Positions 1-20,600 of a DNA stretch of 37,212 bases are shown here, piece after piece (position 1 is the stretch's first letter; every line of letters begins with the position of its first letter). The stretch covers positions 1-37,212 of the IMG/VR virus record IMGVR_UViG_3300001533_001615, one strand, 5' to 3'. The notes under the pieces are model-generated. The model worked only from the letters and a program-made list of their open reading frames with translations, did not search any database and had not been told where the DNA came from. A program made the position numbers and the translations under genes. This DNA is from a virus.

Positions 1-341
1 TGGGAAACAATCCCATTACTATAAAATATATTTCCATTTTCAACATCAAGAACATCATACATATTTGATTTTCCTGATTTTTTTTCAATTTTATCTATTT
101 TTTCTATTCCATCAATAGTTTGTATATAATCATCAATTTTAAGATCTTTACAAAATTTTTCTTCCCAATTATCAGTTATTAATATATGTTCATCAGCACA
201 TATTAGAGATTTTCCATTTTCAGTTATGATTTCCCATTCTTCATATTCTATGGTTTTTCCTACTCCAGAAAATGATTGCCATCCAGAAGGAGTTTCAATT
301 TCCCATTCATCAGTTTCTATTTGTTCAATGAATTTATCCAT
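1..341 (-). CDS. gp17: Large terminase, C-terminal split-gene part (C-intein; C-extein lies beyond the window)
   Basis: This opens with ATG at 341 and reads through 113 codons to the window edge, so it is partial. Translation gives a free-standing intein C-fragment. A block-B-like segment ends in ADEH (residues 49-52). The C-terminal blocks F and G read MYDVLDVENGNIFYSNG then IVS, and the edge cuts the next codon at CA-, which fits the usual penultimate His of ...VSHN. No terminase sequence is visible here; the motor and nuclease domains should follow outside the window. The ATG overlaps the end of the endonuclease gene by 8 nt, suggesting translational coupling. With the N-half at 1325-1696 this would splice in trans to restore TerL, the ATPase and nuclease that packages DNA. 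The fragment begins before block B, so the split point is near the intein N-terminus, as in the atypical AceL-TerL split intein. Confidence 0.88.
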   Translation of the reverse strand, partial: MDKFIEQIETDEWEIETPSGWQSFSGVGKTIEYEEWEIITENGKSLICADEHILITDNWEEKFCKDLKIDDYIQTIDGIEKIDKIEKKSGKSNMYDVLDVENGNIFYSNGIVS

Positions 342-1365
342 TTAAGAACTCCAAACATTTTTCAACAGCATCATTTTTGTCATTTCTATAATCTTCTTCT
401 TTAATATGAAGAACACTATATCCATTTCTAATTATAATTTCATCTCTCTGATGATCTCTCAATCTATTTGTATTTTTAATTATGTGTTTTCCGTGCCAAT
501 AAGTGCCATCAAATTCTATAATTTTTTTACTATCAATATTTATGAAGTCTGGAAAAATAAATCTATTATCAAGATTTAATCTGTATTCATTGTTTAATCC
601 ACTAGTATCTAGATTTTTATCTTCATTAAGTTCAGCAAAAAATATAAACTTTTTTACATCTATATCAATTCTTTCAAATAATTTCCAAAAGAGTTCTTGT
701 GATATTTTAGAGTATCCATTCTTTTTACTTTTCTTATAACTATTATGCCATTTTTCTTGCCTATCTTTCCACCTCAATATCCCATTTTCTTTTCCATATT
801 TTTCTATACATTTTTCTAATGTAAAAGTTGTTTGCCTTTCTTTTATTTTTTCTTTAGATTCTTTTTCTGTAAACCCCCCATTAATCCAATATATTAATGT
901 AGTATCATTATTCCCATTATTTTTATTGGAGTTTGATATTTTATCAATTATCGATTTTTTGTCTACACTATCGGCATATATAAAATTTTTTGATAGTGAT
1001 GAATATTTTCCATTATGATTATATGCAGGATTTTTTTCTCCAGCAATATTTTTTGATTGATTGGTTAAATACTTTTCACTTCTAATTTCGCCATATTCTT
1101 CTTTATATTTCTTTGGTGAAATTTTATGAGTTCTTAGTATGTGTGAAGTTAAGTCGTGAGAAAATAATCCACAAAGTTTACAAGAAATTGCACCTTCAGA
1201 TTTTAGATCGGATTCCGTCTTTATTAGATTGTGTTTAATTTTATATTCATCATAAGAAGAATATCCGTGACTAATTTTTACGTGCCTTGACATATGAGAT
1301 CCGCCTTTTATGACTTCACCACAATCAAGGCACGTCAGTATCACTTTTTTTCTTGAGTTTTTCAT
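334..1365 (-). CDS. Free-standing homing endonuclease, EDxHD/Vsr-like, with two zinc fingers
   Basis: A protein of 343 aa from ATG 1365, preceded by GGTGA; an in-frame GTG at 1374 and TTG at 1377 are less likely starts. Two Ros/MucR-like fingers lie at the N-terminus: C12, C15, H28, H33, and C62, C65, H75, H80. A middle segment has GEKNPAYNHNGK and a YGKENGILRWKDRQEKW stretch of the kind seen in phage homing endonucleases. The C-terminal nuclease core has D273 (FPDF), E284/D286 (IEFDGTYWHG), H291 and D308 (RDEIIIRNGY), fitting the Vsr-related EDxHD fold of I-Bth0305I-type enzymes. It probably cuts intein-less terL alleles and so spreads the split intein. The gene sits between the two halves of terL, overlapping the first by 41 nt and the second by 8 nt. 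Family assignment rests on motifs only. Confidence 0.85.
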   Translation of the reverse strand: MKNSRKKVILTCLDCGEVIKGGSHMSRHVKISHGYSSYDEYKIKHNLIKTESDLKSEGAISCKLCGLFSHDLTSHILRTHKISPKKYKEEYGEIRSEKYLTNQSKNIAGEKNPAYNHNGKYSSLSKNFIYADSVDKKSIIDKISNSNKNNGNNDTTLIYWINGGFTEKESKEKIKERQTTFTLEKCIEKYGKENGILRWKDRQEKWHNSYKKSKKNGYSKISQELFWKLFERIDIDVKKFIFFAELNEDKNLDTSGLNNEYRLNLDNRFIFPDFINIDSKKIIEFDGTYWHGKHIIKNTNRLRDHQRDEIIIRNGYSVLHIKEEDYRNDKNDAVEKCLEFLNG

Positions 1366-1696
1366 AAAATTCACCAATACTTAGTTCTAATATTTTACCA
1401 GTTTTTTTATTTTTTATTCTTATTTTTGTATTTATATTAAAACATTTTCCAGTTTGACGTGGCATCTTACAGATATTAAATCTGTGCTCATGAAATCGAT
1501 TAATGAGTTTTTCCTGAAACTCATAGGGGTGAAATTGTGTTAAACCTTTATCTAGTGATACGATTTTAATATAATTATTTGCAAAATAAACTGGGTCATT
1601 CTGACACTTAATGAACTCCTCAATTTGTTCTTGAGTGAATTCAATCGGAGTATTTGCTTTTTTCAGTAAAGGATTACCTAAATATACATCACTCAT
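1325..1696 (-). CDS. gp17: Large terminase, N-terminal split-gene part (N-extein plus N-intein)
   Basis: A protein of 123 aa. Residues 1-84 are the start of T4-like TerL (DPVYFANNYIKIVSLDKGL, FHPYEFQEKLI) and end in KMPRQTGK, the Walker A motif of the packaging ATPase. Residue 85 is Cys (codon 1442-1444) and begins an intein N-fragment of 39 residues (CFNINTKIRIK, then ILELSIGEFYEKL), followed by a stop at 1325. The intein therefore sits directly after the Walker A Lys, where the +1 residue would be Ser or Thr; an unspliced product cannot bind ATP properly. A normal TerL of this family is about 550-610 aa, so this is only a short N-terminal piece. An AGTAGG element lies about 8 nt before the ATG. 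The end of the reading frame overlaps the zinc-finger codons of the endonuclease gene. Confidence 0.9.
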   Translation of the reverse strand: MSDVYLGNPLLKKANTPIEFTQEQIEEFIKCQNDPVYFANNYIKIVSLDKGLTQFHPYEFQEKLINRFHEHRFNICKMPRQTGKCFNINTKIRIKNKKTGKILELSIGEFYEKLKKKSDTDVP

Positions 1697-1701
1697 AAGA
1701 A

Positions 1702-1848
1702 TTACCTACTAATTTCTTCCCAGTCTAATGAAGCAAAAACATCAGCACCAGCACTATTCGTAGCACATACAAGTGTCAATTTATAAGGAGTTCCAGTCAA
1801 TCAATTTCTTTCTAACTGAAACTTGAATAGTGCTTCTTTTATTATTAT
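1702..1848 (-). pseudogene. Remnant of a small gene upstream of terL, with an in-frame TGA
   Basis: The leader of terL carries a reading frame that looks like protein: KEALFKFQLERN, then TGA (1801-1803), then LTGTPYKLTLVCATNSAGAD and VFASLDWEEISR, ending at TAA 1702-1704, five bases before the terL ATG. There is no ATG in frame; an upstream TAA at 1849-1851 closes it. One substitution (TGA from GGA or similar) would join both parts into about 45 residues. I infer a decayed small gene, or one started at a non-standard codon such as TTG 1800. I do not recognise its function. Confidence 0.45.
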
Positions 1849-1853
1849 TTATG
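1846..1853 (-). promoter_or_regulatory. Late promoter box CATAAATA
   Basis: On the minus strand this reads CATAAATA, matching the NATAAATA late motif reported for T4-like cyanophages (T4: TATAAATA). It lies just after the stop of the upstream structural gene and about 150 nt before terL, ahead of the small-gene remnant. Confidence 0.5.
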
Positions 1854-1870
1854 TAATGAAAAGGTATGAA

Positions 1871-4480
1871 TTAGCATTTCCATCTTCTTCTTGCTTTGCA
1901 AATTGGTTTATCTGGAGTTTTAGAGCAATCAATATTGTGCATATCCCTTTGTCCAGCAGATCTGCTACAAAATGCACCTTGACGTTTTTTTCGAGCACCT
2001 TTTGGATTTTTTTCAGTTACTGCAGTCTGTAGTTTAGAACCCGGATTCTCACGACGATATGCATCAACTGCTTTTTGACTCAATCCATCTGTCTTATCTT
2101 TACGATTGACTTTTTGCCAATCTTCAGTTTGTAAAAACTGCTCACCTGGTTTAATATCTGAAATATTATATGCTAAAACTCTTGCTCCAGGATATACTTT
2201 ATCAATTTGATCCTGAACATCTCTTCTGGTTGGAGTAGAAACCTGTGGAAAGAACATCTTTATTGCATAATACTTTCCTCTCCAATTGAGAGTTACAAGA
2301 ATAATATTTCCAGTTTTTGATGGAATTCTTATAGTTTCATTGACTTCATTATATCCCATAAGTTGATCACAAATACAAGGATTTTGTCCACATCGTTCAC
2401 AAACAATTGGATCTGCTTTGATTACATCATCAACTACCGCAAATGTTTCTCCATATGCATCTTGAATTTCAATTTCTTCACTTATTGATTTCCATTTTCC
2501 ACCCGCCTTTTTATATTCTTTCGCAGCCCAACCATTAGCATAAGCAGAATTACCAGTAATTGTTATAAGTCCATTTTGTACCATTACCCAAGTATTATTT
2601 TCAGTTGTTGGGCACCAAACATCCTCTACACCATCATCCTCAATTATTAAATTTTGTGTAGAGTGATATTTTTTATTTCTTATGATAGTTGCTCCAGTAA
2701 TACAATCAGTTTTTTCATAAAAAGATACATAATATCCATTTAAATATGCTGAAAGTAGAGTTGCCCAAAAATGATCATCATTTTTTTGAGTAAATCCGAA
2801 AGTATGTCTATCTCTTATTTTTGTAGAACCCCCTTTATCGTAACCATCATATACGATTGATGAAGCTAAGTACACTTCTCTCTGCTCTTTATTCCAAGAT
2901 AAAACTTTTTCAACCCAATTATCTTTTTTTGACCACTTTTCTTCAAATAAATTAAAACTCTTATTTTCTTCTAAAGATGCACAAGTAACTACTCGCATTC
3001 TTTTATGAATATCTTTTGTTTCAACTAAAGAAATATTTTGATATTCATTACCAGATCTAACAACCCATTTATGATTTTCAGTTGCTCTTAGTGAAAAACC
3101 AGTTTTTTTGTAAATTCTTTTTAATGGAGCTTGTTCATAAAAATGAAGATGTGAAATTGGTTTCCACTCTAAAATATCCTTATTAATATTATAAGTTAAA
3201 ATATTTTCTCCAATTTTTAATTCATCGTAAGTTTTTAATCCATCTTTAGTAATTGCTTGAGAATCTAAAGGAACACAAGGATAAACATCAAATTTTGCTT
3301 TTGCTCTAGACTTCATTTTAGACCAGAGTGATGGATTTGTTGGAACATTCTTCTCATTAAGAACTTCCGATTCCATCTCAAGGATAATTTTATCCACAAG
3401 AGAAATTTCTTCCTTTTTCAATGATGGTAAAGAAACTCCTGCTTTACGAGCAGCTGCTGATCTTTCACCTTTAGTAGAACCTTGTTGTGCAAGAACACTA
3501 ATTTTTTTCTTCTTTTCTGCCCTCCTTACATCTGCAGGTGTATGCTTAATTTCAAAAGATGTTTCATTCACTGGAACACAATTTGGAACCATTTTATTTC
3601 CTTTCTTTTTCATCCCCTCTTGCTTGTATCCCTTCCAACAAGGATCTTTCTTTGCTTCATCCATAGATCCGTGAACATTATGCTCACCACTATCAATATA
3701 ATCAGCTGCTGAATCAATATAATCTGCTGCTTTTGTGATTTTAGATTGAACCCAAGCTTCTACATTTCCCTCTCCCTTCATTTTTGACTTGAGGCGATCT
3801 ACTGCTTTTCTAATAGTCTCAAGTTCGGAACGAATCATTGAATGTTCGTGATCTGGTTGTTTTCTTTCTTCCTCTATATCAGAACTCAAATCAAATTTAT
3901 CTACAGTCACTTTATCCCAAACTTTTGGACCATAAGAACATTCACTTCTTTTTTCCTTCTTTTCACATAATGGACAATATCTAACTTCTTCAACTTGCTC
4001 TCCACGAAGTTGTCGATAATGGTACTTTTTTTCACTAGAAGGAGCATTTCTTAACCAAGGATCATCATAAATTTTATTATCAACATCATTTCTAATTTGT
4101 TTACTTATTCTTTTTTGTTGATTTTGTGCTCTAATTTGATCCTGAGTCATTCCATCATAAGTCACATTGGTTTCAGATTTTTTACTTTTATTTTTTCTTA
4201 TTTTGTCTAAAAGTCCTTCGTCAATTTTATTGGACACCATTTTAGGTTTTCCTCCCTTTCCTTTGCGATCTGCTACTGGGTCTTTTTTTCTTTTTCTTTT
4301 TACAGCAGAAGCAATTTCACTTTTAGACATTTTTGCTGCTTTCTCATTTGATAGACACTTAGGTTTTGGTTCACCAGGTTCACGAGCACAAGGTCCAATC
4401 GCCTTACCTTTAGTATTATATCTCTTCCAATTTCCTTCTGGATGAGATTTTGAAAACCAATTTCTAAGATCTTCGTTCAT
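1871..4480 (-). CDS. Conserved cyanophage structural-type protein with an internal intein
   Basis: A protein of 869 aa. The N-terminus (GNWKRYNTKGKAIGPCARE) and the basic stretch MSKSEIASAVKRKRKKDP resemble modules in cyanophage proteins of the DUF5872 type. A zinc-binding-like segment RYCPLCEKKEKRSEC lies at 167-181, and a tandem heptad-like repeat AADYIDS occurs twice at 251-264. The C-terminus is rich in basic residues (AYRRENPGSKLQTAVTEK ... RRRWKC). Residues 402-644 are an intein (separate entry); removing it joins ...KFDVYP to SAYANGWAAKEYKKAGG and leaves a 626-aa host protein. A CxxC pair of motifs (CERCGQNPCIC) follows at 694-704. It sits between gp16 and gp17. Many cysteines and basic residues suggest nucleic-acid or metal binding, but the true role is unknown. 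A late-promoter box lies 16 nt upstream of its ATG. Confidence 0.82.
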   Translation of the reverse strand: MNEDLRNWFSKSHPEGNWKRYNTKGKAIGPCAREPGEPKPKCLSNEKAAKMSKSEIASAVKRKRKKDPVADRKGKGGKPKMVSNKIDEGLLDKIRKNKSKKSETNVTYDGMTQDQIRAQNQQKRISKQIRNDVDNKIYDDPWLRNAPSSEKKYHYRQLRGEQVEEVRYCPLCEKKEKRSECSYGPKVWDKVTVDKFDLSSDIEEERKQPDHEHSMIRSELETIRKAVDRLKSKMKGEGNVEAWVQSKITKAADYIDSAADYIDSGEHNVHGSMDEAKKDPCWKGYKQEGMKKKGNKMVPNCVPVNETSFEIKHTPADVRRAEKKKKISVLAQQGSTKGERSAAARKAGVSLPSLKKEEISLVDKIILEMESEVLNEKNVPTNPSLWSKMKSRAKAKFDVYPCVPLDSQAITKDGLKTYDELKIGENILTYNINKDILEWKPISHLHFYEQAPLKRIYKKTGFSLRATENHKWVVRSGNEYQNISLVETKDIHKRMRVVTCASLEENKSFNLFEEKWSKKDNWVEKVLSWNKEQREVYLASSIVYDGYDKGGSTKIRDRHTFGFTQKNDDHFWATLLSAYLNGYYVSFYEKTDCITGATIIRNKKYHSTQNLIIEDDGVEDVWCPTTENNTWVMVQNGLITITGNSAYANGWAAKEYKKAGGKWKSISEEIEIQDAYGETFAVVDDVIKADPIVCERCGQNPCICDQLMGYNEVNETIRIPSKTGNIILVTLNWRGKYYAIKMFFPQVSTPTRRDVQDQIDKVYPGARVLAYNISDIKPGEQFLQTEDWQKVNRKDKTDGLSQKAVDAYRRENPGSKLQTAVTEKNPKGARKKRQGAFCSRSAGQRDMHNIDCSKTPDKPICKARRRWKC
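2549..3277 (-). other. Contiguous intein (243 aa) with degenerate LAGLIDADG motif
   Basis: The intein runs from Cys402 (TGT, 3275-3277) to Asn644 (AAT, 2549-2551), with Ser645 as the +1 nucleophile. Block A is CVPLDSQAITKDGLKTYDEL, block B is SLRATENHKWVV (T-x-x-H form), block F is VEDVWCPTTENNTWVMVQNG, and block G is LITITGN followed by S. The penultimate residue is Gly, not the usual His. Between the splicing blocks, LASSIVYDG (538-546) aligns with LAGLIDADG at five of nine positions, and LLSAYLNGYYVSF (575-587) may be a second relic. At 243 residues it is too short for a full two-motif endonuclease, so homing is probably lost. Exteins on both sides join naturally in the conserved YP|SAYANG motif. 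Confidence 0.9.
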
Positions 4481-4495
4481 TTTAATAGTTTTCTT

Positions 4496-4503
4496 TATTT
4501 ATT
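4496..4503 (-). promoter_or_regulatory. Late promoter box AATAAATA
   Basis: AATAAATA on the minus strand, 16 nt before the ATG of the intein-bearing gene and overlapping the stop codon of gp16. It matches the NATAAATA motif of cyanophage late promoters. Confidence 0.45.
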
Positions 4504-4957
4504 AAACATCATCATTATCGTTATTTAAATTTTGTTTTAAAAGTTTTGATAGTTCTGCTGTTGATCCAACAAAAAGTGCATTTGTAACATTTGTTGGTCC
4601 TTTTTTATTACCAATATTATCAATATCTTTTAATTTTTTCTGAAGATCCATCAATTTTTCAGTTGCATCAGAAACACTTTTAATCAACTGACCAGCAACT
4701 TCGTATGCTCTTGGAGCTTCAGTTTCTTGAGCTAATTCTATAATTCCATTAATTGCTTCTTGACCCTTTTCAATAATTGAATATAAGTTTCCTCTTGTGT
4801 ATTCATAATCTTTTTTTACATCACTAACTATATCTTCACTACTACTAGGTTCATTTAACGAATTTTTATCTGAGCTTGGTAAAACCTCTACATCAACACT
4901 ATCTTCTTCAATATTAAAGGCTTTATTTAAACCATTATACTTTTTTGAATTTCCCAT
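4502..4957 (-). CDS. gp16: Small terminase subunit gp16
   Basis: A protein of 151 aa (T4 gp16 is 164 aa). The central segment DYEYTRGNLYSIIEKGQEAI followed by APRAYEVAGQLIKSVSDATE and LMDLQKKLKDI is the hallmark of T4-type small terminases and should form the coiled-coil oligomerisation region. The C-terminal GPTNVTNALFVGSTAELSKL is also conserved. The first 45 residues are acidic and Ser-rich and look disordered. TerS recognises concatemeric phage DNA and regulates TerL. It starts 3 nt after gp15 and is followed by the intein-bearing gene rather than directly by terL. Confidence 0.93.
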   Translation of the reverse strand: MGNSKKYNGLNKAFNIEEDSVDVEVLPSSDKNSLNEPSSSEDIVSDVKKDYEYTRGNLYSIIEKGQEAINGIIELAQETEAPRAYEVAGQLIKSVSDATEKLMDLQKKLKDIDNIGNKKGPTNVTNALFVGSTAELSKLLKQNLNNDNDDV

Positions 4958-4960
4958 AAC

Positions 4961-5968
4961 TTAAATAAAAGAATCACTAAATCCGAAATCATCACCGGGT
5001 TCTATAAGTAAATTATCTTGTGCTGTTATTGACTTTACTTCAGAACCTGATACGTGAAGTGAAATTGGTGTATTATATTGACCTCTTTCAACAGTTAATT
5101 TGTTACTTACTTTTGACTTAACATATAAAGTTTCATTATTAATGGTAATATATGATTTACTAGAAATACCAGAAGCACTATTTACCTCAATAGTAGTATC
5201 TGAAACTTCAACATCATTGCTTATATTTGTTAATACAGTTCCGGTATAATTTTTAGTTGCTTGTGGTTCTACAGTATAGGTAAGTTCTCTTGTTGGGGAT
5301 TTATTAGACTCTCCAGACACAAAACCAATAGAAACTTTTTTAATAATATCTGAAGTTGCATTATCAGTAGAAACAGGACCAAATAGATAAGTTTTTGCAG
5401 TAAATCTTAAAGTATATATTAATGCTCTTCTTGTTGAAAAATCACCTTCATAATCATCTTGCATAGTTATATTATTCAATATAATTGGAATATCTCTTTT
5501 TTCTCCAATAGATTCTATTAAATCAACAGTTAAATTATATGATGGTTGAAAATATGGTAATATTTGCTCAATGACTTGAAGCATATCATCATTTTGCTTC
5601 GTCATTATTGATAATTCAAAATCAATATCATATGGTACAGGCATATATGCCTTTCTAATATCAGATTTATCTGATATATTATGTGAAAGAAAAGTTTGTG
5701 TTACAGTTGTTTTTCTTCTTGAATCATAATTTATACCAGAAATCTCAAAAGACATTCTGGGCAAATTCATTTGAAATGGTTTGTTTAAATCTGGAGACTG
5801 CTCTAATCTTGCTAAAAACTTTTGAGTTGGACCATAAGCTAGTGGAACTTCAATAACAGATACAACATTTCCAGAATCATCTGTTTTTCTGATTTGTATC
5901 TTATTGAATAGAGTACCAAAAGCAATTACAGTTTTTCTTATAATTTCGTGATAAAAATACTCAAACAT
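4961..5968 (-). CDS. gp15: Tail completion / sheath stabiliser gp15, with an extra C-terminal module
   Basis: A protein of 335 aa (T4 gp15 is 272 aa). The N-terminus FEYFYHEIIRKTVIAFGTLF, then VPLAYGPTQKFLARLEQSPD and MPRMSFEISG-like text (here LPRMSFEISGINYD), is typical of T4-like gp15, which caps the tail tube and sheath and joins the tail to the neck. Residues about 248-313 are an added beta-rich module (DTTIEVNSASGI, INNETLYVKSK, VERGQYNT, LHVSGSEV) that also occurs in the giant baseplate proteins here. The conserved end GDDFGFSDSF follows. The ATG has a good ribosome site, GGGAG, 8 nt upstream, and a late-promoter box 22 nt upstream. Confidence 0.93.
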   Translation of the reverse strand: MFEYFYHEIIRKTVIAFGTLFNKIQIRKTDDSGNVVSVIEVPLAYGPTQKFLARLEQSPDLNKPFQMNLPRMSFEISGINYDSRRKTTVTQTFLSHNISDKSDIRKAYMPVPYDIDFELSIMTKQNDDMLQVIEQILPYFQPSYNLTVDLIESIGEKRDIPIILNNITMQDDYEGDFSTRRALIYTLRFTAKTYLFGPVSTDNATSDIIKKVSIGFVSGESNKSPTRELTYTVEPQATKNYTGTVLTNISNDVEVSDTTIEVNSASGISSKSYITINNETLYVKSKVSNKLTVERGQYNTPISLHVSGSEVKSITAQDNLLIEPGDDFGFSDSFI

Positions 5969-8498: not shown

Positions 8499-11400
8499 TT
8501 ATGCTAAAGCAATAACTCTAAGATTTCTTATAATTGGAACATATGCTTGATTTTTACTTGTACCAATTAATTTAACTCTAAATTGTTTGAAAGGTGATAA
8601 ATTATCTACTGTAAATGTATACTCTTTAAAATCATTTGGTAAAGGTTCATTTAAAAATCTATCTTGCTTCACAATTTTCAAATCTGGACTTCCATTATTA
8701 TTTCTTGTATCAATAATAGATCCGTTAGTATCTATATTTGAATAACCAGGAAATAAAACAAAATTATCATTATTTTCACCTACTGAATATAATGCTCTAA
8801 TATCAGAATCATTATGTAAATAAGCATCAAGTATAACTTTAATTGAAGAAGCAGAATTTTCTAATAAAATAATATTTGAAACATATGTGAATATGTTTGG
8901 ATCATTTTCCAAACTGTTCACTCTTGAATCATTAGCATAATTTGAAATTGGACTATTTACGCGATTGCTTGTTAAAACAACACTATTATTTGAAAGATCA
9001 ACAGTAGGACTAATCCTAGAGTCGGATGTGCTTAAAAATAGATTCACATTAAATGATTTATTTCCGGGTAGGTCATTTAGGTAATTTGTTTCATTTATTT
9101 TAGAAGCAATAATTCTAGGAGAGTCAAAATAATTTATAGAATTGTTTGTTATATCTTGGAATCCTTGATCTACAAAAGGAACTTCATTTCCACCTAGACT
9201 AGTTCCACTTACAGTCCTAACTGCAGACTTAATACTTGTTCCAGTTGGTGCAGTTTGTCTTATATTTGGAATAATCATTTCAAATGGAATATTATAAGTT
9301 GCTTTTCCTCCAGATCCTCCAGATTTTTTAGTCTCATTAATTTTTAGTTTACCAAATCCAGTATTCACACTTCTATCAACTCCATTTGAAGACATATCAA
9401 GTTTTATGTGATAGTAATTAACTCCGATTGGTTCATTGATGTTATTGCTAACATCAGACAAATTATGATTTGTATTAATTCTTCTTAAAGAAACTCCTCC
9501 TAATTCATATTTTTCAACAAAATCACCAACTGAATAATTAAATCCTTTAGTATCATCAATTTCTCTAGATACTCCTGTTAAAGTTGTTGCAGTTGTTCCA
9601 GTATAACTTAAAATTTCATCAAATATTTTTACATATCCTGGATTACTTGAAGAGACTTGTATTCCTTCAAAAGTAGAGAAATCTGTAGTATTAGAAACAA
9701 ATAAAGTTGTTTCTGATCCAGATGCACTTGGATATTGTGATGTTAATTGAACTAAATCAAGATCAGATTTAATATCTCTTATGGTTACGGTATTTGAAGA
9801 TGAGTGCATTCCGTGATTTCTGTGAAATACTTTTATATGCTCACCATCTGATGTAACATTTAAAGAACTTATTGATAGTTCAGATCCATCATTACTAAAG
9901 TCAGTTGTTAATCCAGAATTATTAATGAACTTAATAGGATCTGATGGTGAAGTACTAAATTCGCCTTGAATATTATCAATAATAAGTTCGTTTTTACCTA
10001 AAATACTGGAAACACTTAGTCTCATACCAATTCCAAGATTTTGATTACCAATTGATATTGGCTCTAGTACATCCCCAATTACATATCCACTTCCACCATT
10101 AACTATAGTAGCTCCTGAAGAAACTACCCCACCATTAGATATAGTGATATTTGCAGTTGCATTTATTCCATATCCTGTAATGCTAGTTAAAGCAACTCCA
10201 GTGTAAGTAAAACTTCCAGATGATGGAGTATAACCAACACCAGAGTTTACAACTCCAAGTGTGCTAAATGCACTTCCTGCATAACCAACAAGATTTCCTG
10301 TTACAGTTGCAAATCCAGTAGGACTTTGAGTTACTGTATTTCCTATTACTAAATCATTATTAGTAATAGTTGAGGATAAAGACACACGAACTCTATTTGA
10401 TATTATTTTTAGTGGATCTTTAGTCATTACTTCAAGAGTTTCTGGAAGATTTGAATTAAACAATTGAGTAAATCCAGAAGTTTCAAAGTTTGCTCTGTAT
10501 AGTTCAAATGTAAGGTCTTCATACTGACTTGGAGTCCAAGTTGATGCATTTTGAGACTTAAATAATGATCCTAATAGTCTTTGAGTTGTTACTAAGAACT
10601 GATTTTGTTCAGATCCTAAAGTTGCTACATCAGGTTCTCCAAGTCTAGAAATCCATACATTATACTCATTAGAATTTGATAATACTATAACCGCATATTC
10701 CCTCTGAGGTTCCAAATATACTGGAGACTCAAATGTAAATGTAGTTGGTACAGAAGCATCTTCAGACAAATTAACTTCATCTGGAGTGAGTTCAACTTCA
10801 GAGAATGGTAATATTTTTTGACTTGGTGTTCCAAGTTCAACTTCTCTTATTTGAATTGCAACTGGTAAAGTATCATCTTTTGTTCTGAAATAAATATCAA
10901 GTTTTGTTACAAAAACTCCTGTTGTATCATCAACTAAAAATGATTGCGCTAATGGGTCAACATATTCTCCAGTTAGTCTGGTATTATCTGATAAAGTTTG
11001 AGTACTTCTACTTACAGTAGTAGTTGAATCTAATAAAGTACTATCTGATAATGACCTTGTTTGTCTAAAACTATCATCAACCTCAACTCTAGCATTTCTT
11101 AGTGATAAAGTAACTTCTTGAGTATTATCAGTATCTCCTTGTGAATAAAAAGTTTCTTCTGCAACTGTTGTTACAACACCTGGAATTTGAGAATTTGATG
11201 AGCTACTCGTTAATCTAAATCTTGATCTACCAGTTTCAAATTGAGGATCTCCTTCAACTCCAGATGGAACATCATAAGATCCAATAAGTGTACCGACTCT
11301 ATCAGTGATAAGTCTAACATCAGAAACAGTAGATTCTGCTCCTGATGATAAACCTCTAAGACTCATTCCATTGCGAACAATACCATTAAATCCAGTACTA

Positions 11401-14400
11401 GATTCATCTGAAAGTGAATAAGTATCAACATTTAATATTGTACTTGTTGATGAATACGTTTCAGGAATTCTATTTTCCCTATCATAAGGATTTCTATCAA
11501 ATGTTGTAGTTGGATTGTTATATGGTCCATATTTATGATTTGATTGTGCAACTCTAAATCTTACTAAAGATTGCCCATTTATAGTACCAACAACAGTTTC
11601 TCCAACTTGAAATGTTCCAGTAGACATTTCAATTTCAATTAATTTACTAAAGCAAAAATCTGATACATTTACACCATCAAAAAATGGATATACTTGTGTA
11701 AATGGTTTCATTCGTCTAGATGTAAATTCAATATTTCTAGATCTCATAAATGTAATAATATCTCTACTTACAACCCTATCACCAAAAGATTCTGTATCAA
11801 TTTGTTCATTTACAGTATATTGTGTTCCAGATCTTTGCTGATCAAGTCTAAGGTCTAAGAATTCATTAGTTGTGGTTACAGTGGTTCTTGTTCTAGTGGT
11901 TCTTTCTCTTTCTTCACCGACAAGAAAAGTTGTAGGAACACCATTTGCCGCAGATAGCCCTGTAAATCTTGTAAATTCAGAAGCAGTTCCAGCTCTATTA
12001 CTAGTACTTCTAGAAGTATTAGTTCTTGTTGAAGATGAACTATTAACTTCTGTTCTTTTGTTTAAATCTATACCTGAAGTTTCCCAAGATTTCCAAATTA
12101 CAGGACTAACACCTAGTCTATCACCATCTTCATTTGTTGAAATTTCTGCTCTTAAAGATTCAGCAACTCCTAAGAAAGATCCCTCCATATCTACATTATT
12201 AATTTCCATTCTATTTGTATCAATCCAAACATCCACTGTTGGATATAATTCAATAGAACCTTCCCAAAGTTTAACAAAGAATGGAGTTACATTTTCAGTT
12301 CTTGTTGCAAAGGGTTGTTTTAACCAACTTGTATCACTATAATCAAGAGAAATAACATCACCACTTCTTTTTATGTTTGATCCAACAATATCTGAGAATT
12401 TTTTATCATTATTTTCTTGAACTGTTGATCCAATACCAGCAATTGTGTTATTACCAACTTCTAATTTTAAATTTGTAGTATAATGAGATGGTCTAAGCTC
12501 TCCTTTTTTAGTATCAATACTATTTTTAACACCTACTTTCAGGTTCTGAGTTAATAGACTAGAAAAATTATCTACATAGAAACCAGACTTGAATCTATTC
12601 AATCCTGTTCCGTCATCAACAAATAAATTTTGAGTGTTAGTTTCTAATAAAGATAATGTAGTATAATTTTCTAGAGATTTTAATCTTCTTTCAAGATTAA
12701 AAATATCTCTCATTTGGTATCTTTTATGTTGAACAAATTCAATTTGTGCATCAGATGAATTATATAAGTATGGTGGTAGATATATATTTGCAATATTCAT
12801 TGCACCAGAAACTTCTTCTGGTAAAGTAGGTATATCAGAAGGATTTCCATATTTTACGGAAAAACTCTTATCTTTATTCAAATATATTCTATCAATTCTT
12901 GGGAGATAGTAATTATATATAATAGAAATTGACTCATCTGATGATGCAACATTTTTTGCACTATGTTTAGTATGATTAAATGATCTACCATCAAACTCAA
13001 ATGGAGATCTTTTATTTTCAGATACAACATAATCAGCAACTCTTGGTCTAAAATCTACAATATCAGTATTTCTATATCCAGAAATTGAAGATATTTCTGT
13101 TTTATAGTCAAAAGTATTATATGAATTTACAGTTGTAATGTCTCCAGTGTCTGAATTATCATAATATCCTCTCATAAAAACTACTTTTAGTTTTCTCTTA
13201 GGTTCTTCTGAACTTGAATTTCTTACTAATCTTGAATAATCGTAATATGTTGATTTTTGACCTGTGCTTAAAGTATATGAGTCTGTTACATTTTTACTCC
13301 CTGGATTAATTGATCCTATAATTCCTCTAACATTTGATTGTGAAAATTCAACAATTTCTCCATTAATAAATCTAGAATTATTTTCATAGATATAACCTAT
13401 AGATGTATCTGTTTTTCTTTCTGCGTATAAAGCTTTAGCACCGCTTATATTTCCAGTTAAAGTTTCACCTATAATTAAATCATTAGTTGTTGAGGATGGT
13501 CCATCCATTGAACCAATAGTAGCATTTGGAATTTGTGGATCGGAAGTATTATTAGATTCAAAAACTCCGTAAAGAAGATTTACATCTGGATAATTTAAAC
13601 ATACTTCTCTATCTTGAACTCTTGTTCCATAGGGATAGTTACCATAAATTAATCCATCATTTAAAGTTGTACTACCAGCTCCAGAAGAAACACTAGAAGA
13701 TTTATTTACAATAATACTATCTACAATTTTTTTTCTTTTTGTTTTTGATTTTAAACTTCTTTTTCTTAATGTCGCAATCAAAACACAATTTGAATCATTT
13801 GATCCAAGATTATTAAATCTGATTTGAGTAAATCCTGATTGGAATTCAAATCTATCTGATGTTAAAGTCTCTAAAGTACCATCACTTCTAATTAGAATAT
13901 ATCTTTCTTCATCAAATGGTAAAAATACTTCATTATCTCCTGCTGAAATCCAATTTGTAGATCCAGAGTTAATGCTTACATCACCACTATCAAATTGTTT
14001 TCTTATAATTAATTCAGAATCTTCTAAATTTACAGTATTAATATTTCTCTTTGGGAAAACACTGAATAGTGAATCATTATCAGAAACATTCCCACTATCA
14101 CTACTTGTTTGAAGTTTAGTTGATAGTACAGTTAAGTTGTTAGAATTTATTTCTGAATTAGGTAAATTTCCATATACTAAACTTGATACACTCGGAACTG
14201 CTGAAATTTCAAATTCCCTAGATTCATATGAAACTGAAGAAACTCTTGCATATGATATTGTAGATATTCCAGGTTGTGTATATTTTACTAAATTTCCAGC
14301 AGTTACTATTCCAGAAATATTAAGTCCATTTACAGTAACTGTTGATATACCACCACTAGAAGCACTTATAGTAGCATTTCCTATGAAATTAGAATCGGAT

Positions 14401-16100
14401 TGAACAGTATTAGCAGAAAATGTGCCTACACCAGTATTTGAAAATACAGATTTTATATCTGATATTTTATAATTTTTAATATTTGTTATATATCTAGAAT
14501 TTTGATCGGGATCTGCATCACTAAATATTAAATTTTCTTTTTCTGAAAATTCTCCATTAATTTGATATATTGTAATTGTATTTGATGCTGAAACAGCAGT
14601 TTTTAAGTATCCAGTAGATCCTGTGCTTTCTCCAATAACATATGTGGGAATTGTTAATGTTACTGCCTCATTCAAAGTTACTGTTGAATAAGTTTGTACA
14701 TCAAATAGTGTTAGATCCCAAGAATTTGTATTTAAATCTGGAACATCATATCCACCCTGCTCCAATACAAAATCATAAACTCTTGCTATTCCAATTTCAT
14801 TTCCTGCTGCTGTAGCAGATCCAATACCAATTCTTTCATCTCTAAGACTTAATGTTGTAGAAGTACTAACACCAATTAAAGGAGATCCAAATACAGTATT
14901 AACCGATAAAGTTGGACCAAAACCAACATTGATTGCTTGGTTCTTTACGGTTTTTGTTGTTCTTGGTTTTGGCGCATCAATAAAAGTTGGTCCTTGAAAA
15001 TCGACTTCATATCCCTTTACATATGCTTTTCCAGGACTTACTTTATATACAATTAGATCATCGCTAGGAACTGATCCATCATAAGTAAGCTCTCCCCGAT
15101 TAAATATACCACCATTACCAATTCCGTCATTTAAACTTTCTTTACAATATGTTGTAAATGATTTTACATAATAATGCCCAGACTCATCAAAAGTTCTTCT
15201 TGCTAGTTCATCTCCAAGAATATTGTATTCTGTATTATTATTAATTTCTCTCAAAATACCATTTTGAACAGTAGCTAACTGAACAAAAGAAGTATTATCA
15301 AAGTCATTAATGTCTTTTTTAAATAATGTAGCAGTAATTTTTAATCTATCTGCTCCAGGTGCTGAATAATTGTTATAACCTTGAGCATTATCTGTTAGAT
15401 TTTCATCTGTATCTGAAGTTATTATTTCCTCACTTACTAACAAACCGACTTTGTAACTTGGTTTGTTGGTATATTGATCTAAAATTAATATTTGATCTGA
15501 AATTTCAACAAAAGTACCTCTAAGAAAATAAACACCATTTGATAGTGCAAAAGCTGATCCAGTAGAAGTTGAATTATTTGAAATAGTTGATGCAAATCCT
15601 TCTCCAGATGATATAAAAGTAGATCCAAATTGTATAGGTTCTTCTGTAACTAAAACTTCATTATCTGAAAACTCTCTTTTTGAAAAATCATTTGATGAAG
15701 ATTCTAAGTAATCTAGATATAATGTAATATTATTTCTTTCCGATTCACTTGAAGTTAATACTTTTACAATTTTAGATCTTACTCCAGAACTTCTTCCATA
15801 TATTTTAATTCCTACTAAATTATCAAGATATAATGATACTGGTATACCAGAAAAGTCATCATTTATTTCAACACAATAAAAATTACTATTATATTTTAAC
15901 TGCCCAGGAATAACTTTCGCACCTTCTTTAAAAAAATGAGACCCAAATTGTTCAATTTGATTTTGTAAAATTGATTGTAAAGTTGTTAATTCTCTTGCCT
16001 GTACTGGATATCCAGGTTTAAATAAAACCTTATAATAATTATTATTTTTTTCAAAATCATCAAAATATGGAGATACGTTGAAATTAGTTTCCTGTGGCAT
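8499..16100 (-). CDS. gp10: Giant baseplate wedge / tail-fibre attachment protein, gp10-like, DUF4815
   Basis: A protein of 2533 aa. The N-terminus (NVSPYFDDFEKNNNYYKVLF, PGYPVQARELTTLQSILQNQ, FGSHFFKEGAKVIPGQ) is the DUF4815 region typical of cyanophage baseplate proteins in the gp10 position. It ends with a jelly-roll-like tail (FKEYTFTVDNLSPFKQFRVK, YVPIIRNLRVIALA). Between are many beta segments, a Ser/Thr/Arg-rich stretch near residues 1350-1375, one or two GxGY units (about 1945-2015) and a VSNTTDFS...IFDEILSY module near 2127-2203. T4 gp10 is only 602 aa. It lies between gp8 and gp13, as gp10 does in T4. I infer a role as peripheral baseplate or fibre-anchoring protein; the gp10 symbol is by position and N-terminal domain. 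Confidence 0.82.
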   Translation of the reverse strand: MPQETNFNVSPYFDDFEKNNNYYKVLFKPGYPVQARELTTLQSILQNQIEQFGSHFFKEGAKVIPGQLKYNSNFYCVEINDDFSGIPVSLYLDNLVGIKIYGRSSGVRSKIVKVLTSSESERNNITLYLDYLESSSNDFSKREFSDNEVLVTEEPIQFGSTFISSGEGFASTISNNSTSTGSAFALSNGVYFLRGTFVEISDQILILDQYTNKPSYKVGLLVSEEIITSDTDENLTDNAQGYNNYSAPGADRLKITATLFKKDINDFDNTSFVQLATVQNGILREINNNTEYNILGDELARRTFDESGHYYVKSFTTYCKESLNDGIGNGGIFNRGELTYDGSVPSDDLIVYKVSPGKAYVKGYEVDFQGPTFIDAPKPRTTKTVKNQAINVGFGPTLSVNTVFGSPLIGVSTSTTLSLRDERIGIGSATAAGNEIGIARVYDFVLEQGGYDVPDLNTNSWDLTLFDVQTYSTVTLNEAVTLTIPTYVIGESTGSTGYLKTAVSASNTITIYQINGEFSEKENLIFSDADPDQNSRYITNIKNYKISDIKSVFSNTGVGTFSANTVQSDSNFIGNATISASSGGISTVTVNGLNISGIVTAGNLVKYTQPGISTISYARVSSVSYESREFEISAVPSVSSLVYGNLPNSEINSNNLTVLSTKLQTSSDSGNVSDNDSLFSVFPKRNINTVNLEDSELIIRKQFDSGDVSINSGSTNWISAGDNEVFLPFDEERYILIRSDGTLETLTSDRFEFQSGFTQIRFNNLGSNDSNCVLIATLRKRSLKSKTKRKKIVDSIIVNKSSSVSSGAGSTTLNDGLIYGNYPYGTRVQDREVCLNYPDVNLLYGVFESNNTSDPQIPNATIGSMDGPSSTTNDLIIGETLTGNISGAKALYAERKTDTSIGYIYENNSRFINGEIVEFSQSNVRGIIGSINPGSKNVTDSYTLSTGQKSTYYDYSRLVRNSSSEEPKRKLKVVFMRGYYDNSDTGDITTVNSYNTFDYKTEISSISGYRNTDIVDFRPRVADYVVSENKRSPFEFDGRSFNHTKHSAKNVASSDESISIIYNYYLPRIDRIYLNKDKSFSVKYGNPSDIPTLPEEVSGAMNIANIYLPPYLYNSSDAQIEFVQHKRYQMRDIFNLERRLKSLENYTTLSLLETNTQNLFVDDGTGLNRFKSGFYVDNFSSLLTQNLKVGVKNSIDTKKGELRPSHYTTNLKLEVGNNTIAGIGSTVQENNDKKFSDIVGSNIKRSGDVISLDYSDTSWLKQPFATRTENVTPFFVKLWEGSIELYPTVDVWIDTNRMEINNVDMEGSFLGVAESLRAEISTNEDGDRLGVSPVIWKSWETSGIDLNKRTEVNSSSSTRTNTSRSTSNRAGTASEFTRFTGLSAANGVPTTFLVGEERERTTRTRTTVTTTNEFLDLRLDQQRSGTQYTVNEQIDTESFGDRVVSRDIITFMRSRNIEFTSRRMKPFTQVYPFFDGVNVSDFCFSKLIEIEMSTGTFQVGETVVGTINGQSLVRFRVAQSNHKYGPYNNPTTTFDRNPYDRENRIPETYSSTSTILNVDTYSLSDESSTGFNGIVRNGMSLRGLSSGAESTVSDVRLITDRVGTLIGSYDVPSGVEGDPQFETGRSRFRLTSSSSNSQIPGVVTTVAEETFYSQGDTDNTQEVTLSLRNARVEVDDSFRQTRSLSDSTLLDSTTTVSRSTQTLSDNTRLTGEYVDPLAQSFLVDDTTGVFVTKLDIYFRTKDDTLPVAIQIREVELGTPSQKILPFSEVELTPDEVNLSEDASVPTTFTFESPVYLEPQREYAVIVLSNSNEYNVWISRLGEPDVATLGSEQNQFLVTTQRLLGSLFKSQNASTWTPSQYEDLTFELYRANFETSGFTQLFNSNLPETLEVMTKDPLKIISNRVRVSLSSTITNNDLVIGNTVTQSPTGFATVTGNLVGYAGSAFSTLGVVNSGVGYTPSSGSFTYTGVALTSITGYGINATANITISNGGVVSSGATIVNGGSGYVIGDVLEPISIGNQNLGIGMRLSVSSILGKNELIIDNIQGEFSTSPSDPIKFINNSGLTTDFSNDGSELSISSLNVTSDGEHIKVFHRNHGMHSSSNTVTIRDIKSDLDLVQLTSQYPSASGSETTLFVSNTTDFSTFEGIQVSSSNPGYVKIFDEILSYTGTTATTLTGVSREIDDTKGFNYSVGDFVEKYELGGVSLRRINTNHNLSDVSNNINEPIGVNYYHIKLDMSSNGVDRSVNTGFGKLKINETKKSGGSGGKATYNIPFEMIIPNIRQTAPTGTSIKSAVRTVSGTSLGGNEVPFVDQGFQDITNNSINYFDSPRIIASKINETNYLNDLPGNKSFNVNLFLSTSDSRISPTVDLSNNSVVLTSNRVNSPISNYANDSRVNSLENDPNIFTYVSNIILLENSASSIKVILDAYLHNDSDIRALYSVGENNDNFVLFPGYSNIDTNGSIIDTRNNNGSPDLKIVKQDRFLNEPLPNDFKEYTFTVDNLSPFKQFRVKLIGTSKNQAYVPIIRNLRVIALA

Positions 16101-17676: not shown

Positions 17677-20600
17677 TTATATAGGGTTATAATTTTGATA
17701 ACGAAGATAATTGTATCTTCTTACTAAAGGAGTTGTGTTTAATCCAACAACTCCATAATTTGAGTTTACAGTGTATGCATTTTGCGTTCTAGGAACTTCA
17801 ATAACACCCCAACTATAATCACCATAATAATTACTATAACCAAAACCCGTTAAACCATCATAACTAGAAATGCTCACCGTAACTTGTGCAGCAGTAGCAT
17901 TACCTTCTCCATAAACATCAGTAGAAGCAAAAGAAACAGAAATAACTTGATATATATTATCAATTCCTTTAGTCCCTATTCCAATAATTGATCCATCCTT
18001 TCTTAAAGAAGTAACTCCAGATCCAATTTTAGAATTAGAAACTTTAAAATAATAATTCTCTAAAAGTCCTGTTTGAGTAATTGTAGGAGTCACTATAGAT
18101 CCATTCCTTAAGTAGGAATTACTAGGGATAAACATATCAAATATTAATGCTGTAGATGCAAATCCAACACTAGTAGTTTTAATACCAGTAATTATTCCAA
18201 AATCTCCTTGATATGAAACACCTTCAATATACTCTGACTTTGTTTTTGGTGGTTCTATATAAACTAAGGGTGGATTTGTGTAAGTATATCCAAATCCCGC
18301 TGAAGTAATAGATATTTCAGTAACAATTCCAGAATTTATTTGAGAAGTTAATATTGCTCTTCCAGTACTTCCAATTCCAATTGGATTTTGAATTGCAACT
18401 ATTGGATTTGAATTATACCCATATCCGCCACTTATAATATCTACTGATTGTATGATCCCAGAAATAGAAACAATAGCAGTTCCAATTGACTGCACTAATT
18501 CACTATTATCTAAAATCTCAATTGAATTTCTTATATCTCCAGTCGTATTTTCATTTTCAGCGTCAAATATAGTTTTTACATTATCTACAAATATTTGAGT
18601 TGAACCAACACCAACGGAATTTATAATATTACCTAAAGGGAAAATTCTTGATTCATAACTTGGCCTATCTTTTCCTATCTCAATACCATCAACAATAGTA
18701 TCATTTCTTTGTTTACACCAAGTAACAGGTCTTTGCAAAGTTGTATTAGATGTTATACCAATAGAATTATATGGATTGGTTTCTAATGTATCTGGTAAAA
18801 TAATATCACGAACTAACCTCTTATTTTCTGTTAATTTATAATCATTACTTGTTATTCTTACAGTATCACCAGTTTTGATAGTTTCTTCAATATCAACATC
18901 AATTACATCTACACCTGGTGTTCCTTTATAGAATAAAATTCTACATTTTGATCCAGACTTTGGAGATTCTAAAAATTCTATTAAGCTTCCTCCATCAAAA
19001 ATATAAGAAATATTAGGTTCCTGTAAAACATCGTTTACAAATATTAAAAGAGTAGCACTTAAATCAATATTAGATCCTTCCTTTGCGACAATAGCAAATC
19101 TTTCACCATTATCAGAAATTGGAAAAGTTTTTCGGAATCCATCAAATAAATGATCAATATCATCTATTTTTTGTAACTCACCCATAGACCATCCACTAAA
19201 TTCATCTTTATATGTTCTATTAACTATAATAGAGAAAGGTTCAAATAAAATATTGGAATCTGTTGGTATTCCAGAAGTTCCTCCAGTTTGTACTGTTAGT
19301 ATATCTCCAACATTATAAGAGTACCCATAATTTTTAATCTTAAAGTCAATTACACTTGATCCTTGACCTACAACTATATCAATTTTTGCTTGGGATCCAA
19401 TACCAGTATTTGGAGATTGATAAATTAAGTTTAAGTTTGAATATGAAAGAGGATCATCAAAAACAACTTCTGGAGGATTTGTTGATGTATATCCAGATCC
19501 AGGATTTGTAATTGCTACACTTACAATATGTCCACCTAAAACTGTTGCTGTACCTATAAATTCAATATTTGGAGATGATCCACTTAGTGTTTGTACTCCA
19601 ACACGAACAATTGGTTGAACTCCGGTTCTATATCCAGAACCGGAGTTTCCAATACTAACACTTTGAATAGTTCCTGCAATAGAAACTATTGCCGTTCCTC
19701 CTGCAGATACTAATGGTTGATATCCAAAACCATTACTAGATCCTACAGATACAATTATTCCACCTCTTGGAACATTTGCATTATTGGGATCATATAAAGC
19801 AGATGTTGCAGTTCCAGTAAAATTCAACTGGGTTTGTGATAAGTTTTCGGATAGATTGTAATCATTTTCTGGACTTTGAAATATACTATTTACTAAAACA
19901 ATTGAATTTGAGGTTGAAAATCCCGATATTGCACTTCCCTCTGAAGTTATATTAAAATCTTTTCTTACCGCATTAAAACTAGAGCTAATATCATCAAAAA
20001 TATAATTATTTCTATATGTTTCTTTATTTGAATCTAGTACTCCAGATCTTATAAATGCTCTACCCTGAAAAGTTGATCTAATATTAATATCTCCCTTTTC
20101 TTCATCATATATTGGACCATAAGGAGCTTCTGAAAAATATAAAGTATTTCCAATAATATTATAGTTTCCTTGTATTTTAGTAATTAGAGTATTTGAAGAA
20201 TGTGTAGATAATCCTGTTCCCATAAGAGGTCTTTGGACTTCTACAAATGTTTCACTACCAACACCAACAGAAGAAATTTTCATAATTTCATTATCAACTT
20301 GAATTAAGTCTCCACTAAAAAATGAAGTTATTCCTGAAAATGGTAAAGTTGTATCAAGCAAAGCAATATCATCTACAAGAAGTGAAGTAACTGCTGTTGA
20401 AACTATTGGTGATTGAATTACATTATCAATTAAGATAATTACTTTACTGTTTTGTTTTTTTGATGTTATATAATGTCTATTTCCTATACCAACAGAAGTA
20501 AAATCTATGAGTTTTGGTGGAGATGATAAAGAATCAATAGGTGAAGTTGTTAGTCCAATGTAATTTTCATCAAATTTATATACATATAAATTTCCACTCA

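What the first reader, a model, noticed from the sequence alone, without database searches (positions are those of the whole stretch)
1..1696. Terminase large subunit fractured by a split intein at the Walker A motif, with an endonuclease gene between the halves
The sequence shows TerL residues up to PRQTGK, then a Cys-started N-intein of 39 residues and a stop. An endonuclease gene follows, then a new ATG and an intein C-fragment whose end (FYSNGIVS plus CA-) is the standard intein C-terminus. This is the 'fractured gene' arrangement reported from marine metagenomes (Dassa et al. 2009). The early split resembles AceL-TerL, whose N-part is about 25 residues; here it is 39. Trans-splicing would be required to make an active packaging motor, and the +1 residue would be the Walker A Ser/Thr. 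This looks like a new member with its own split point.
Basis: partly seen in the sequence, partly recalled or inferred. Interest (0 to 1): 0.92.

Follow-up and report, generated by a model that had tools for sequence, protein, structure and literature searches.

The report
Terminase gene split by mobile intein
A marine T4-like (cyanophage-type) virus encodes its DNA-packaging motor as separate proteins that a self-removing 'split intein' should stitch together; the split intein and the DNA-cutting gene inside it move between phages as one unit, and relatives show the same element unbroken, re-fused, overprinted or scattered across a genome, which makes the origin of split inteins testable.

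Summary
Confirmed. On the minus strand, window 1-1696 holds TerL up to PRQTGK, a 39-residue N-intein and stop, an intact Vsr/EDxHD-type homing endonuclease (HEN), then a C-intein. Contigs with a 100% identical C-intein continue HN|STTVVSYLLHY plus full TerL; cyanophage S-SKS1 has the uninterrupted TerL. So it is a 'fractured gene' with an atypically split intein at the Walker A Lys|Ser. It differs from AceL/GOS-TerL in site; their relative occupies a second site in sister phages. New here: (1) the module is 96-98% identical in DNA between phages whose exteins are 77-79% identical, so halves and HEN moved together. (2) The three genes overlap: an IntN motif (IGEFYE) also encodes the HEN's likely ribosome site and ATG. 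(3) Relatives include a re-fused contiguous intein with HEN relics (L006), contiguous inteins with the HEN overprinted in +1 (0 stops, 15-31 expected), and isolate SCTP-2 with TerL in three distant genes, where trans-splicing seems unavoidable. Splicing and cleavage are inferred, not shown.

The parts
1445..1696 (-). TerL N-extein, 84 aa, MSDVYLGN...PRQTGK, ending at the Walker A Lys
   Evidence: continuous homologue in S-SKS1
1325..1444 (-). N-intein (IntN), 39 aa, Cys1 ... DVP, then stop
   Evidence: NCBIfam intein_Nterm weak in this ORF, E 0.043; same IntN in about 90 loci
1363..1375 (-). Dual-coded stretch GGTGAATTTTATG: codes (I)GEFY of IntN and is the likely ribosome site and ATG of the HEN in the +1 frame
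   Evidence: ATG at this place in 29/39 overlapping vs 1/16 non-overlapping loci
334..1365 (-). Homing endonuclease, 343 aa, zinc-finger-like N-part and Vsr/EDxHD-type C-domain (IIEFDGTYWH)
   Evidence: Pfam DUF559 above cut-off, Vsr below; I-Bth0305I 3r3p by profile and by model; invariant D, E, H, E
334..341 (-). 8-nt overlap of HEN stop (336-334) and IntC start (341-339)
1..341 (-). C-intein (IntC), 113 aa in the window plus the first two bases of the His codon; HN|Ser+1 and TerL-C lie beyond the contig edge
   Evidence: profile hits VidaL, CatC, gp41-1; model of the natural fused relative

Best explanation
A mobile fractured-gene module in the TerL (gp17) gene of a T4-like phage of the cyanophage type. 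Two TerL precursors are made: TerL(1-84)-IntN(39) and IntC(115)-TerL(rest). The halves should associate into a Hint domain and splice through Cys1, His-Asn and Ser+1, rebuilding the Walker A motif PRQTGK-S and so an active packaging ATPase. Between the halves a Vsr/EDxHD homing endonuclease, translated from a start buried in the IntN coding sequence, should cut intein-free terL at Walker A so that repair copies in the whole IntN-HEN-IntC unit. Shown: anatomy, site, intact reading frames, conserved splicing motifs, continuation into TerL in relatives, empty allele, recent transfer of the module as a unit. Inferred: splicing, DNA cleavage, translational coupling.
For: Junctions and continuation PRQTGK|C...SHN|STTVVSYLL; unbroken TerL in S-SKS1; IntC profile to VidaL, CatC and gp41-1; confident Hint-like model of the naturally fused relative L006, best PDB match VidaL; HEN to I-Bth0305I and Vsr; module 96-98% vs extein 77-79% DNA identity; isolate SCTP-2 with TerL pieces about 173 and 38 kb apart on different strands, leaving trans-splicing as the plain way to join them.
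Against: No splicing or cleavage data. The window's own C-extein is not seen. NCBIfam intein models match the window halves only weakly or not at all, although the fused relative L006 reaches the C-terminal cut-off.
Confidence: 0.9

Rival explanations
1. TerL is joined at RNA level (group I/II intron) or by programmed frameshifting through the HEN, not by trans-splicing of protein.
For: The three genes overlap and lie in three frames, so frameshifting is formally possible; phage terL introns exist, for example in ICP1 (PMC10448857).
Against: No Rfam match up to E 1 in window 1-5000; 55 stops in the IntN frame and two separate shifts needed; clear intein sequence at both junctions; SCTP-2 has the pieces at distant loci.
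Confidence: 0.03
2. The locus is a decaying pseudogene: the phage no longer makes TerL from it, or has another copy.
For: The window is a fragment, so a second terL cannot be excluded; some relatives have HEN relics (L007, L009).
Against: All three frames are intact here and in many relatives; catalytic and splicing residues are kept; L002-L004 have full downstream TerL.
Confidence: 0.04
3. The HEN is an independent free-standing endonuclease that happens to sit in the gap and does not mobilise the intein.
For: Free-standing HENs commonly lie beside phage terminase genes (PMC10448857); no cleavage data.
Against: The high-identity block runs from Cys1 through the HEN to near the end of IntC and drops to about 77-80% at once outside it; HEN start and stop overlap IntN and IntC; HENs of this family sit between intein halves at Walker A of several other ATPases.
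Confidence: 0.08

Closest known systems
Fractured genes with split inteins and a Vsr-like HEN family (Dassa et al. 2009; paper not held, known from citations and memory)
   Same: Gene broken by a split intein with a free-standing Vsr-like HEN between the halves; phage metagenome origin
   Different: TerL Walker A site; IntN only 39 aa; overlapping genes with the HEN start inside IntN; contiguous, overprinted, re-fused and dispersed states of the same lineage described here
AceL-TerL and GOS-TerL atypically split inteins (consensus Cat-TerL)
   Same: Same host protein, short IntN split after helix alpha1 (S2), related IntC fold and sequence
   Different: They match the intein at the EFE|CEFLG site with Cys+1; this one is at Walker A with Ser+1, and both occur together in one TerL in L003, L004 and L007
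VidaL and gp41-1 split inteins
   Same: Nearest solved structures by profile and by model
   Different: VidaL is split earlier (S1, 16 aa), gp41-1 canonically late; different host genes
I-Bth0305I (3r3p), EDxHD homing endonuclease
   Same: Catalytic domain by profile and fold
   Different: I-Bth0305I belongs to an intron; here the HEN lies between intein halves and carries a zinc-finger-like N-part
ShiLan out-of-frame HNH element (PMC11855218)
   Same: Endonuclease hidden in another frame of an insertion that stays open in the host frame, as in L038, L044, L055, L121
   Different: ShiLan has no splicing domain and an HNH nuclease; here the open frame is a recognisable intein and the nuclease is Vsr-like
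Contiguous P-loop TerL inteins (mycobacteriophage TerL1-a, PMC5050341; Ackermannviridae TerL inteins)
   Same: Insertion between Walker A Lys and Ser/Thr of TerL
   Different: Single chain; Kuttervirus and Kuja copies are only about 33-35% identical in IntC and lack a HEN

Membership tests
Fractured gene (Dassa type) | Host gene split into two ORFs ending and starting with intein halves | tested here: met
Fractured gene (Dassa type) | Free-standing HEN of the Vsr-like/EDxHD family between the halves | tested here: met
Fractured gene (Dassa type) | Uninterrupted homologue exists | tested here: met
   S-SKS1 TerL
Class 1 intein (splicing domain) | Cys1, block B His, C-terminal His-Asn, Ser/Thr/Cys+1 | tested here: met
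   Cys1 and ADEH in the window; HN|S read in the identical relatives L002-L004
Class 1 intein (splicing domain) | Hint fold | tested here: met
   predicted for the fused relative L006, pLDDT 88.9, intein matches
Class 1 intein (splicing domain) | Splicing activity in trans | not testable with these tools
   indirect: SCTP-2 gene layout
Atypically split intein (S2) | Short IntN with split after helix alpha1 | tested here: met
   IntN 39 aa, split falls at the end of the first helix (residues 29-46) in the L006 model; published range 15-37 aa
AceL/GOS-TerL lineage | Insertion at the EFE|C site with Cys+1 | tested here: not met
   Walker A site, Ser+1; the AceL/GOS-like intein sits at another site in L003
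Mobile homing element | Element far more similar between hosts than the flanking host gene | tested here: met
   96-98% vs 77-79% DNA identity
Mobile homing element | HEN cuts the empty allele | not testable with these tools
   no assay possible
Group I/II intron in terL | Catalytic intron RNA between the exons | tested here: not met
   no Rfam match up to E 1 in window 1-5000

The most novel reading that the evidence does not exclude
Split and contiguous states of this intein interconvert through reading-frame overlap. The HEN starts inside IntN in the +1 frame. Where the intein frame stays open across it, a contiguous cis intein carries an overprinted HEN (L038, L044, L055, L121). Where stops accumulate and IntC gains its own start, the gene becomes fractured (as in the window). 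Deletion of the HEN re-fuses it (L006; perhaps L119, L147). Fractured pieces can then drift apart, as in SCTP-2. Split inteins of this family would thus arise by frame loss around an overprinted HEN, not only by gene rearrangement.
Probability: 0.35. Interest if true: 0.82.

Novelty: new variant of a known kind. Interest (0 to 1): 0.64.

Why it matters
How natural split inteins and fractured genes arise has had few intermediates. Here one intein lineage at one site (TerL Walker A) shows contiguous, overprinted, fractured, nuclease-less, re-fused and genome-dispersed states, with near-identical pairs for experiments (split L002 vs re-fused L006; empty S-SKS1; isolate SCTP-2). The short IntN and Cys1/Ser+1 chemistry are also of practical use for peptide ligation, and phages with two split inteins in one TerL should hold pairs that do not cross-react.

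Tried and rejected
Extending the window's own record: it is exactly the 37,212-base window, so extension came from relatives. Group I/II intron: rejected. Membership in the AceL/GOS-TerL lineage: rejected by site. Frameshift fusion: rejected (three frames, 55 stops). TnpB as the new homing nuclease of the L009 intein: considered; the TnpB element interrupts the HEN and leaves HEN relics on both sides, so by the usual guide rule (established knowledge) it would target HEN alleles, not empty terL; left as an unproven curiosity. Direction between split and overprinted states: the IntC tree (115 columns) is too poorly resolved to settle it. Dassa 2009, Gorbalenya 1998, Bachmann and Mootz 2015 and the Gosselin 2025 preprint are not held, so overlap with their findings could not be excluded.

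Full report
What is there. On the minus strand of window 1-1696, three overlapping genes follow each other. The first (ATG 1696, stop 1325-1327) is TerL up to PRQTGK (84 aa) plus 39 residues starting with Cys. The second (ATG 1365, stop 334-336, 343 aa) is a nuclease. The third (ATG 341) is a C-intein that runs off the contig at ...FYSNGIVS-CA. The window is the whole public record, so the right junction had to be read in relatives.

Continuation and empty site. A viral-contig search with the C-intein found 13 loci; L002, L003 and L004 are 100% identical to it in protein and continue HN|STTVVSYLLHY... through the TerL ATPase and nuclease domains (Pfam Terminase_6N and 6C). Synechococcus phage S-SKS1 has the same TerL unbroken...CKMPRQTGK|STTVVSYLLHY..., with 93% DNA identity to L002 over the C-extein. 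The intein therefore sits between the Walker A Lys and Ser. For one neighbouring window gene (gp6-like baseplate wedge) the closest isolates are Prochlorococcus and Synechococcus T4-like phages, at under 60% protein identity.

Intein identity. The IntC family (alignment A1) keeps ADxH and ends SHN; the Walker A junctions found are followed by Ser or Thr. Its profile finds solved split inteins: VidaL 3e-12, CatC 2e-11, gp41-1 5e-11. The two halves of the window were not folded together, but L006 carries the same intein (96% DNA identity in IntC) as one natural chain. Its model has mean pLDDT 88.9 and intein structures as matches, VidaL best; the window's split point falls at the end of the first helix. 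That is the S2 position of AceL-TerL and GOS-TerL. Published natural short IntNs run from 15 to 37 aa (PMC13014065); 39 is marginally longer.

Not AceL-TerL. In L003, L004 and L007 the same TerL carries a second split intein at EFE|CEFLG, with a GIY-YIG nuclease between the halves. That IntC matches CatC, the AceL/GOS consensus, at 3e-54. The two IntCs of L003 are 32% identical and the IntNs 20%. 26 fetched loci, not all distinct, carry both a Ser/Thr+1 and a Cys+1 IntC. Phages with both split must assemble TerL from three or more polypeptides, which predicts that the pairs do not cross-react.

The nuclease. The HEN has zinc-finger-like N-terminal motifs and a C-terminal Vsr-like domain (Pfam DUF559 above cut-off, Vsr below). 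Its profile and its model both find I-Bth0305I (3r3p); the model also finds Vsr (Foldseek E-values are weak, 0.02 and 0.05, but with probability 1.00). D273, E284, H291 and E323 are invariant.

It moves as one unit. Window, L002 and L005 have IntN-HEN-IntC 96-98% identical in DNA, while the TerL N-parts are 77-79% identical and the L002/L005 C-parts 77%, with the change at the intein borders. Both intein halves and the HEN were therefore transferred together recently, as homing predicts.

Overlapping genes. IntN contains the motif IGEFYE. In the window it is coded ATTGGTGAATTTTATGAA, which in the +1 frame gives GGTGA, five bases, ATG: the likely HEN start. Among loci with a +1 HEN that overlaps this motif, 29 of 39 have ATG there; where the HEN does not overlap, 1 of 16 (Fisher p 3e-6). 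Loci are related, so p is only a guide. The HEN stop and the IntC ATG overlap by 8 nt. Coupled translation of the three cistrons is likely, not shown.

States of the element. Across 107 representative IntCs: 52 are split with HEN, 17 split without a long HEN, 6 contiguous minis, 4 contiguous with an overprinted HEN (one truncated), one split with TnpB, 27 undetermined. Host sites are Walker A of TerL, DnaB/gp41-type helicase, gp46-type and other P-loop ATPases, named from motif only.

Re-fused: L006 and L011, from two metagenomes, have one ORF from TerL-N into IntC (in L006 on to TerL-C); the linker is the start of the HEN, with most of the HEN gone and the frame restored. With IntC about 96% identical to the split form, this is a direct case of split to contiguous.

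Overprinted: in L038, L044, L055 and L121 (L038 and L121 with copies in a second assembly) the intein frame is open for 924-993 nt while a complete HEN with IIEFDGTYWH lies in the +1 frame (the motif was read for L038, L044 and L055). Shuffling synonymous codons of the HEN gives 15-18 stops on average, or 22-31 with host-gene codon usage, and never fewer than 5 in 20,000 trials each; observed 0. Split relatives have 21-54, about as expected. L055 and L121 differ at about 35% of sites, yet both have 0 stops in the intein frame and 17-19 in the third frame. HEN protein identity is 62%, intein-frame identity 31%: the linker's sequence is free, but its openness is kept. The nearest published parallel found is the ShiLan out-of-frame HNH element, which has no splicing domain (PMC11855218). 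That paper cites a 2025 preprint on non-canonical actinobacteriophage inteins that I could not read, so priority is uncertain.

Dispersed: the isolate Salicola phage SCTP-2 (MF360958, complete genome) encodes TerL-N plus IntN in gp534 (429356-429748, minus), IntC plus the middle of TerL plus a second IntN in gp267 (256428-257321, plus), and a second IntC plus the rest, with a further in-frame intein-like insert, in gp224 (215993-218077, minus). All three are annotated simply as terminase large subunit. Unless SCTP-2 has another TerL not found in the searches, joining them needs protein trans-splicing, the best available evidence that this lineage does so. SCTP-2's IntC is a distant relative (37% identical).

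Limits. No splicing or cleavage was measured. The window's own C-extein is unseen. The tree has few columns and does not fix the direction between overprinted and split forms. The gene names gp41 and gp46 rest on motif and memory.

Noticed in passing
window 2549-3277 (minus), inside ORF 1871-4480: A second, contiguous intein of 243 aa (CVPLDSQAI...ITGN|SAYANG) in a DUF6321 protein; L006 has the empty site (FDIWPSAYSSGW). It matches DNA polymerase I inteins of Escherichia phages at about 32-33% identity.
   Followed up: partly
L038, L044, L055, L121 (about 0.9 kb between IntN and IntC): Contiguous TerL inteins whose frame stays open across a full HEN gene encoded in the +1 frame (overprinted); 0 stops where 15-31 are expected.
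   Followed up: yes
MF360958.1 (L096, L183-L188): Isolate Salicola phage SCTP-2 has TerL in three genes at distant loci and on both strands, with split inteins at Walker A and Walker B and a further in-frame intein-like insert.
   Followed up: partly
L009 4506-6000: A TnpB (OrfB_IS605) gene lies between the TerL intein halves, flanked by relics of both ends of the HEN: a transposon-type nuclease nested in a homing nuclease.
   Followed up: partly
L003, L004, L007, L012, L025, L033, L079, L085: TerL genes with two or more inteins: a second split intein of AceL/GOS type at EFE|CEFLG (GIY-YIG nuclease in L003, L004 and L007, Vsr-like in L012), and further insertions near Walker B and motif C in others.
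   Followed up: partly
L016 (Vibrio phage Va1, MK387337): Isolate with a split TerL intein at the NFE|CNFLG site; the HEN and the C-intein are one continuous reading frame.
   Followed up: partly
L010, L013, L042, L043, L105, L122, L145: The same split-intein family at Walker A of other P-loop ATPases (gp41-type helicase, gp46-type and further ATPases by motif), suggesting a P-loop-seeking lineage.
   Followed up: partly
window 8499-16100, 17677-22170, 22181-29848: Very long structural-looking proteins (2533, 1497 and 2555 aa), several stretches with repeated GSGYTxxPxV-like motifs.
   Followed up: no
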